64,000 bases of DNA from Iamia majanohamensis. Lineage in GTDB: Bacteria; Actinomycetota; Acidimicrobiia; Acidimicrobiales; Iamiaceae. The notes below the pieces were generated by a model. It was not told the DNA's origin. It made no database searches and saw nothing but the letters and a program-made list of their open reading frames with translations. Shown here piece by piece: positions 40,388 to 42,137 of the stretch (its first letter is position 1; each line of letters begins with the position of its first letter). Location: NCBI RefSeq assembly GCF_028532485.1, contig NZ_CP116942.1, positions 1,116,001 to 1,180,000 of the forward strand, written 5' to 3'. The position numbers and the translations under genes are program-made.

Positions 40388-40500
40388 GCGTCGCGCCCGG
40401 TCCACCCGCCGCCGCGGCGGCACCGCACCTGCACGCGCCCACGACGGGATCCGCCGCCGCGCCCGGACCGGTGCGGGGGCGCGCATGCCCGACGGCAGGG

Positions 40501-40512
40501 GAACATGTGTTC
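40501..40512. promoter_or_regulatory. LexA-type SOS box GAACATGTGTTC
   Basis: Perfect 12-base palindrome matching the GAAC-N4-GTTC consensus of Gram-positive and actinobacterial LexA boxes. It lies at the -35 position of the following promoter, where bound LexA would block polymerase. I found no second perfect copy in the window. Confidence 0.72.
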
Positions 40513-40523
40513 GTCTGCTCGGG

Positions 40524-40529
40524 TACGGT
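40524..40529 (+). promoter_or_regulatory. -10 hexamer TACGGT, leaderless start
   Basis: Six bases before the ATG of the 59-residue gene and 12 bases after the SOS box. Confidence 0.55.
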
Positions 40530-40535
40530 GCGGCC

Positions 40536-40715
40536 ATGGGACGACGGGCCGACCCGGCCAAGGTGCGCGAGGCGCGGCTCTGGGGGGCAGTGGCCCGCCT
40601 GCGCGACGTGTGGGTCGGCGACGCCGAGCAGGCCGCCCGCCTGCGGGCCGAGTGGCCCGGGCTGGCCGAGGTCGTCGACCGCCTGGCCGAGCTGGTCCGC
40701 TGGGACCGACGCTGA
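40536..40715 (+). CDS. 59-residue protein under a LexA-type box
   Basis: Not recognised. Sequence is charged and helical (ADPAKVREARLWGAVARL, then AARLRAEWPGLAEVVDRLAELVRWDRR), Trp- and Arg-rich, with no Cys and no membrane segment. The coding case rests on the promoter, the box and an ATG at leaderless distance. A role in the DNA-damage response is inferred only from the box; a repair accessory, a division inhibitor or a toxin/antitoxin partner are all possible. Neighbours are a small CxxC protein and a LigD-type polymerase. Confidence 0.7.
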   Translation: MGRRADPAKVREARLWGAVARLRDVWVGDAEQAARLRAEWPGLAEVVDRLAELVRWDRR

Positions 40716-40739: not shown

Positions 40740-41000
40740 CTAGTGGGCCACGTCGGGGGCCCGGGGGGAGAGGGCCTCGCTGCAGGCCGCGCACGTGCCC
40801 GCGGCCCACGGGGTGAACGAGCGGCGACCCGGCTCCGGGGCCATGGCCTCACCGGTGCACTGGGCCTTGGCGTGCTCGGGGTCGAGGGCGTGGATGTCGC
40901 CCACGGGCAGCATCCGCCGGGCCCCCCGGTCGCCGTCGTCGGACTTGTGGTCGACGGGCGTCCAGTCCTCGGCGCCCATCACGAAGGAGACGACGGGCAT
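40740..41000 (-). CDS. Small CxxC protein, unknown function
   Basis: 86 residues; GAGG precedes the ATG. N-terminal MPVVSFVMGAEDWTPVD, a central HALDPEHAKAQC stretch and a C-terminal GTCAACSEAL. The three Cys and His residues could make a small zinc site. Leftward, converging on the 59-residue gene. Not recognised beyond that. Confidence 0.65.
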   Translation of the reverse strand: MPVVSFVMGAEDWTPVDHKSDDGDRGARRMLPVGDIHALDPEHAKAQCTGEAMAPEPGRRSFTPWAAGTCAACSEALSPRAPDVAH

Positions 41001-41162: not shown

Positions 41163-42137
41163 ATGCCGGACACCGCCCCGACCTGGGACGCACCGACCGA
41201 GGACGAGCTGGCCGCCCTCGATGCGCTGGGGGTCAAGGGCGAGTGGGAGCTCCAGGGCCGCACCCTGAAGCTGACCAACCTGGACAAGGTCCTCTTCCCG
41301 CCCGGGGCCGACGGCGAGCCCGTCACCAAGCGGGACCTCATCCGCTACCACGCCTGCGTGGCGCCGGCGATGCTGCCCTACCTGGCCGGTCGGGCGGTCA
41401 ACTCCAACCGCTTCCCCCAGGGCGTCGACCACCCCGGCTTCTGGCACAAGTCGGTGCCCAGCCACGCCCCGGACTGGATCACCACCTGGCGCTACCCCGA
41501 CGCCCGGCCCGACGACACCGCCCAGACCTACATCGTCCCCGACAGCCCGGCCACGCTGGCCTGGCTGGCCAACTACGGGGCGGTCGAGCTCAACCCCTGG
41601 AACTCCCGCACCGCCACCTGGCGGGAGCCGGCCTGGGCCTACATCGACCTCGACCCCGGGACCGAGACGGACTTCGAGGACATCGTCGTCCTGGCCCGCC
41701 TGCACAAGGTGGTGCTCGACACCCTCGAGGTGCAGGCCGGGGCCAAGGTGACCGGCAAGCGGGGCATCCAGATCTGGGTGCCGATCGGCCCGGGCCACAC
41801 CTTCGAGCAGACCCGGGGCTGGGTGGAGTCCATCTCCCGGGCCGTCGGGAAGTTCGTCCCCGAGATGGTCTCGTGGGCGTGGGCCAAGCGGGAGCGGGGG
41901 GGCAAGGCCCGCCTCGACTTCACCCAGAACGCGGTGAACAAGACCCTCGTGGGCCCGTTCAGCGCCCGTCCCGCGGCGGGGGCGCCGGTGTCGGTGCCGA
42001 TCCTCTGGGAGGAGCTCGACGACCCCGACCTGGCCCCCGACCGGTGGACGATCCGCACCGTCCTCGACCGCCTGGCCGAGGTCGGCGACCCCCTCCGCGA
42101 CCTGGTCGACGTCGACCAGGACCTCCCCGAGATCTGA
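41163..42137 (+). CDS. Stand-alone LigD polymerase-domain (archaeo-eukaryotic primase fold) protein
   Basis: 324 residues containing only the polymerase/primase domain of the NHEJ protein LigD, without ligase or phosphoesterase parts. Metal ligands D162 and D164 in AYIDLDPGTETD; LTNLDKVLFPP and ARLDFTQNAVNKTLVGPFSARP are family motifs. A conserved His position (LigD E-x-H) reads Asn here (VELNPWN, residue 144), and GKRGIQIWVPI replaces the usual G-x-H strand. It may fill gaps or add ribonucleotides during break repair. No Ku or ligase gene is in view. Confidence 0.88.
   Translation: MPDTAPTWDAPTEDELAALDALGVKGEWELQGRTLKLTNLDKVLFPPGADGEPVTKRDLIRYHACVAPAMLPYLAGRAVNSNRFPQGVDHPGFWHKSVPSHAPDWITTWRYPDARPDDTAQTYIVPDSPATLAWLANYGAVELNPWNSRTATWREPAWAYIDLDPGTETDFEDIVVLARLHKVVLDTLEVQAGAKVTGKRGIQIWVPIGPGHTFEQTRGWVESISRAVGKFVPEMVSWAWAKRERGGKARLDFTQNAVNKTLVGPFSARPAAGAPVSVPILWEELDDPDLAPDRWTIRTVLDRLAEVGDPLRDLVDVDQDLPEI

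What the first reader, a model, noticed from the sequence alone, without database searches (positions are those of the whole stretch)
40501..40715. Perfect LexA-type box controlling an unrecognised 59-residue gene
GAACATGTGTTC is a complete match to the actinobacterial SOS box and sits at the -35 position of a clear leaderless promoter. The gene encodes a small, Arg/Trp-rich soluble protein that I cannot assign. A LigD-type polymerase gene lies about 450 bases further on. This makes it a candidate undescribed SOS effector.
Basis: partly seen in the sequence, partly recalled or inferred. Interest (0 to 1): 0.7.

Follow-up and report, generated by a model that had tools for sequence, protein, structure and literature searches.

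The report
SOS-box-linked small orphan gene
A high-GC bacterium (resembling an actinobacterium) has a near-perfect DNA-damage (LexA) switch in front of a tiny 59-residue protein gene with almost no known relatives; the switch matches the organism's other SOS switches, but neither switch nor gene is conserved in its kin, so what the protein does is unknown.

Summary
GAACATGTGTTC lies at 40501-40512, 35 bases before an ATG, followed by TACGGT placed for a leaderless start. It belongs to the genome's own LexA motif: matching boxes precede recA, lexA (two), dnaE2 and imuA'-imuB, and overlap the start of dinB (the identical 12-mer) and ruvC. It outscores recA and lexA; about 0.07 such sites per genome are expected by chance. 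The 59-codon ORF looks coding, and one clear homologue exists (G159, another family of the order; 25 of 58 aligned residues identical), which supports the gene and its start codon.

About 870 other whole genomes plus phage, plasmid, viral-contig and GTDB scans gave just that one homologue. It has no SOS box and sits among hypothetical genes of unusual composition. Eight loci with orthologues of the neighbouring LigD-type polymerase (seven related genomes) have neither box nor small gene, and in the window an opposite-strand ORF separates them. AlphaFold gives three helices with no significant structural match.

Best reading: a recently acquired accessory gene placed under LexA repression. LexA control is likely (about 0.85) but untested; a role as SOS effector is unproven (about 0.3). 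Interest is modest.

The parts
40501..40512 (.). LexA (SOS) box GAACATGTGTTC; 14-mer GGAACATGTGTTCG at 40500-40513
   Evidence: PWM score 22.5 bits versus leave-one-out recA 19.6, lexA 18.1, dinB 23.7; identical 12-mer at the dinB start in the same genome
40524..40529 (+). Putative -10 element TACGGT (leaderless start at the A of the ATG, 40536)
   Evidence: sequence; inference from TAnnnT and spacing; the generic sigma-70 scan is negative
40536..40715 (+). 59-aa ORF (P0001), predicted three-helix soluble protein, the likely LexA target
   Evidence: codon log-likelihood; homologue in G159, E 6.2e-9, whose start corresponds; AlphaFold2 pLDDT 81.5, helices 7-28, 30-39, 41-56

Best explanation
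A genuine LexA operator overlaps the promoter of a leaderless monocistronic gene for a 59-aa soluble, basic, three-helix protein. In undamaged cells LexA dimers cover the -35/spacer region and keep the gene off. After DNA damage RecA-driven LexA self-cleavage frees the promoter, along with those of recA, dnaE2, imuA'-imuB, dinB and ruvC. The gene is a sporadically distributed accessory gene that in this lineage sits behind a strong SOS box. Shown: box identity and fit to the genome's SOS motif, coding signal, one remote homologue, absence at the syntenic site in relatives. Inferred: LexA binding, damage induction, leaderless translation, horizontal acquisition. Molecular activity: no direct evidence; the most likely is binding to a protein or nucleic-acid partner, as small helical stress proteins do.
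For: Box matches the sites of lexA (two boxes), recA, dnaE2, imuA'-imuB, dinB and ruvC and scores above recA and lexA. Close relatives use the same box upstream of recA, dinB, dnaE2 and imuA'. The ORF has a coding codon signal, while the in-frame upstream extension from ATG 40485 does not (-12.8 bits), and the homologue starts at the corresponding Met. Homologue local score 117 against shuffled mean 26, maximum 57. No other coding-looking ORF starts just downstream of the box, on either strand.
Against: The single homologue (G159) has no GAACN4GTTC box in its 3-kb locus, although G159 carries such boxes elsewhere, one of them upstream of a uvrA-like gene. No homologue in the other searched genomes of the genus, family, order, class and phylum samples and none at the orthologous LigD-pol loci. 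No expression or binding data. Spacing differs from other SOS promoters here: about 11 nt between box and -10, against 2-5 nt at recA and dnaE2.
Confidence: 0.72

Rival explanations
1. The box is a real LexA site, but the small ORF is a passenger: a young or decaying accessory gene without a role in the damage response, its promoter having picked up or inherited a box. (This overlaps with the best explanation on LexA control and differs only on function.)
For: Gene and box absent from all close relatives at this locus; the homologue lacks the box and lies in a GC3-depressed stretch of hypothetical genes (GC3 about 0.75-0.83 against about 0.97 nearby).
Against: The box is one of the best in the genome, not a degenerate one; the ORF has full coding signal and a conserved core (D-P..V-R, L-R-D, E-W-P) with a remote homologue.
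Confidence: 0.4
2. The box controls the LigD-type polymerase downstream, or a small regulatory RNA, not the 59-aa protein.
For: The polymerase is a repair-type enzyme about 650 nt beyond the box, same strand.
Against: An opposite-strand ORF lies between (40743-41000); the polymerase orthologues in relatives have no full box upstream; the -10 is spaced to start transcription at the ATG of the small ORF; no terminator-like element or inverted repeat suggests an sRNA.
Confidence: 0.06
3. Chance match to the LexA motif next to a random open frame.
For: High-GC DNA is full of spurious long ORFs; a one-genome association.
Against: 0.07 full-core sites of this score expected in the whole genome; the ORF passes the codon test and has a significant homologue.
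Confidence: 0.05

Closest known systems
LexA/SOS regulon of Actinobacteria (Streptomyces venezuelae consensus tCGAAC-N4-GNNCGa, PMC9380542; M. tuberculosis LexA regulon, Davis et al. 2002, cited in PMC5005354)
   Same: Same operator core GAAC-N4-GTTC; core targets recA, lexA, dnaE2, imuA'/imuB, dinB and ruvC carry it here; S. venezuelae also has LexA-controlled hypothetical proteins.
   Different: The 59-aa target matches no family in the libraries searched and is nearly an orphan.
Small SOS-induced regulators or inhibitors (DinI, SulA, YneA, SidA, ChiZ types; from general knowledge)
   Same: Small protein behind a LexA box.
   Different: No match to any Pfam, NCBIfam or PHROG family; no evident transmembrane stretch or LysM domain; no evidence of division inhibition or RecA modulation.
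DUF3072 small protein in the same genome
   Same: Another small protein (79 aa) with a strong LexA box in front (G000:C1:2654377, 21.4 bits).
   Different: Unrelated in family; DUF3072 is an established Pfam family, P0001 is not.

Membership tests
LexA regulon (SOS genes) of this organism | Operator matching the genome's LexA consensus in the promoter region | tested here: met
   Score 22.5 bits versus 18-24 for the known SOS genes; box starts 35 nt before the ATG
LexA regulon (SOS genes) of this organism | Operator conserved upstream of orthologues | tested here: not met
   Only one homologue found (G159), no box there; no orthologue in close relatives. With one remote homologue this is weak negative evidence
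LexA regulon (SOS genes) of this organism | LexA binding and induction by DNA damage, dependent on RecA | not testable with these tools
   Needs EMSA or ChIP-seq and RNA-seq
DUF2740 (PF10872) | Match over the curated gathering score (27 bits) | tested here: not met
   13.8 bits, E 0.05, 19 residues only, not matched by the homologue
LigD-associated NHEJ gene | Conserved neighbourhood with the LigD-type polymerase | tested here: not met
   Eight orthologous polymerase loci in seven related genomes carry no such gene in the 1.5 kb upstream

The most novel reading that the evidence does not exclude
P0001 and its G159 homologue define a new family of small helical proteins, deployed as a DNA-damage effector in at least one lineage under LexA, with the homologue under another control.
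Probability: 0.25. Interest if true: 0.5.

Novelty: new member of a known kind. Interest (0 to 1): 0.32.

Why it matters
If induced, it would add an uncharacterised protein family to the actinobacterial-type SOS response and show how accessory small genes are recruited under LexA. If not, it is a near-orphan gene beside a good operator. Either way the genome-wide box list gives a predicted SOS regulon for this organism.

Tried and rejected
Pfam, NCBIfam, PHROGs and PDB sequence searches of P0001: nothing beyond a sub-threshold DUF2740 match. Whole-genome searches: 41 relatives, 397 of the order, 396 of the phylum, 395 of the class, and 33 of G159's family; samples overlap, about 870 genomes searched for P0001 or the two-row profile in all. 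Weak hits below G159 were inspected for the better-scoring rows and are out-of-frame or unrelated stretches; the weak class hits were not inspected one by one. GTDB, viral, plasmid and phage scans negative or insignificant. Foldseek against PDB and BFVD: no match at E <= 0.001. Rejected: control of the LigD-pol, sRNA, chance box. A PADLOC scan failed because my coordinates included a stop codon, and I did not repeat it. A loose resemblance of the G159 upstream sequence (CTGTCGCAC-N8-TAGCGT) to the PafBC RecA-NDp promoter, as I recall that motif, was noted; the passages read from the paper consulted did not print the motif, so it is not claimed.

Full report
Observation. The 12-mer GAACATGTGTTC is at 40501-40512 and is the only site within two mismatches in the window apart from its own reverse complement. 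A 59-codon ORF starts at ATG 40536 and ends with TGA 40713-40715. TACGGT at 40524-40529 lies 6 nt before the ATG and, if GAACAT serves as the -35, 17 nt after it: a plausible leaderless promoter, though a generic sigma-70 scan does not call it.

Is the box real? The window lies at 1,116,001-1,180,000 of a single-contig 4.58-Mb genome. GAACRNNTGTTC occurs at nine places there, the reversed control at none; the looser GAACNNNYGTTC gives 17 forward hits against 2 in the control. The sites fall at lexA (two boxes, 2680014 and 2680039), recA (2699622), imuA'-imuB (1314779), dnaE2 (1325747), dinB (3980256, the same 12-mer) and ruvC (2026322, where the box overlaps the start). The imuA' assignment rests on position before imuB and on sequence character; Pfam gave it no family. 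A weight matrix made from those seven sites without the target scores the target 22.5 bits, above leave-one-out recA (19.6) and lexA (18.1) and near dinB (23.7); 0.07 full-core sites of that score are expected by chance in the genome, and the next-best site in the window scores 15.0. The published Streptomyces consensus tCGAAC-N4-GNNCGa (PMC9380542) has the same core.

Is the gene real? Its codon log-likelihood is 39.5 bits, against 57 +/- 13 for true coding chunks of the same length and a maximum of 29.5 in 450 non-coding-frame chunks. The in-frame extension to ATG 40485 scores -12.8, favouring the downstream start. A homologue exists in G159, in a different family of the same order (E 6.2e-9; 25 of 58 aligned residues identical; local score 117 against a shuffled maximum of 57), and it begins at the corresponding methionine. 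Identical-residue codons differ synonymously in 9 of 25 cases.

Is it conserved, and is the box conserved with it? No other homologue was found in the other genomes searched for it (about 870 in overlapping samples of relatives, order, class, phylum and G159's family) or in GTDB, viral, plasmid and phage collections. The three congeners lack it. Eight orthologous LigD-pol loci in seven related genomes have no full box and no such gene upstream. The G159 homologue has no GAACN4GTTC in 3.1 kb, yet G159 has strict boxes elsewhere, one of them before a uvrA-like gene. Its surroundings are hypothetical genes with GC3 near 0.75-0.83, next to genes at 0.96-0.98, as in an acquired stretch.

What is it? 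Library searches give nothing. AlphaFold2 on the two-row alignment predicts helices 7-28, 30-39 and 41-56 at mean pLDDT 81.5 (pTM 0.54); Foldseek finds no match at E <= 0.001 in PDB or BFVD. The protein is basic (12 Arg, 1 Lys against 5 Asp, 5 Glu) with no hydrophobic stretch long enough for a membrane helix. Of four Trp only W40 (in E-W-P) is shared with the homologue, so Trp richness is not a family trait.

Mechanism. The simplest account is LexA occlusion of the -35/spacer region, relieved on LexA cleavage, giving a leaderless mRNA for a small partner-binding protein. Control by LexA I put at about 0.85; a functional role in the SOS response at about 0.3. The LigD-type polymerase (PF21686) is a separate gene beyond an opposite-strand ORF, and its nearness is best treated as coincidence.

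Verdict. Observation confirmed, interpretation partly supported: a well-supported predicted LexA-regulon gene of unknown function with almost no phylogenetic support.

Noticed in passing
G000:C1:2654377 (L005 1501-1512; gene L005:1252-1488 -): A second small LexA-box gene in the same genome: a 79-aa DUF3072 protein (Pfam E 2e-30) with CGAACGGGTGTTCG shortly before its ATG (21.4 bits). Conservation of that box with DUF3072 was not tested.
   Followed up: partly
L121, L115, L132, L123, L136, L117, L119 (relatives G016, G012, G014, G009, G001); L018 in G000: DUF222 proteins (three with an HNH domain hit) are the most frequent strict-box targets in the related genomes: 7 of 23 loci, usually with the box overlapping the start codon. 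This parallels the LexA-regulated 13E12 repeat family of M. tuberculosis (PMC5005354, PMC4181829).
   Followed up: partly
G000:C1:2373271 (L004:1538-2404 +): A 289-aa protein without a Pfam match has CGAACAACCGTTCG (17.1 bits) 37 nt before a TTG start; possible further LexA target.
   Followed up: no
window 41163-42134 +: Stand-alone LigD-type primase-polymerase; in several relatives (L082, L084, L085, L086) the orthologue follows an ORF that looks like the LigD phosphoesterase domain (R-F-V-V-Q-R-H-R-A...), which is not adjacent here. The phosphoesterase identification is by eye.
   Followed up: no
G000:C1:734248 (L020): GGAACCAGTGTTCG overlaps the GTG start of a ClpC-like ATPase (13.9 bits); may be chance.
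   Followed up: no
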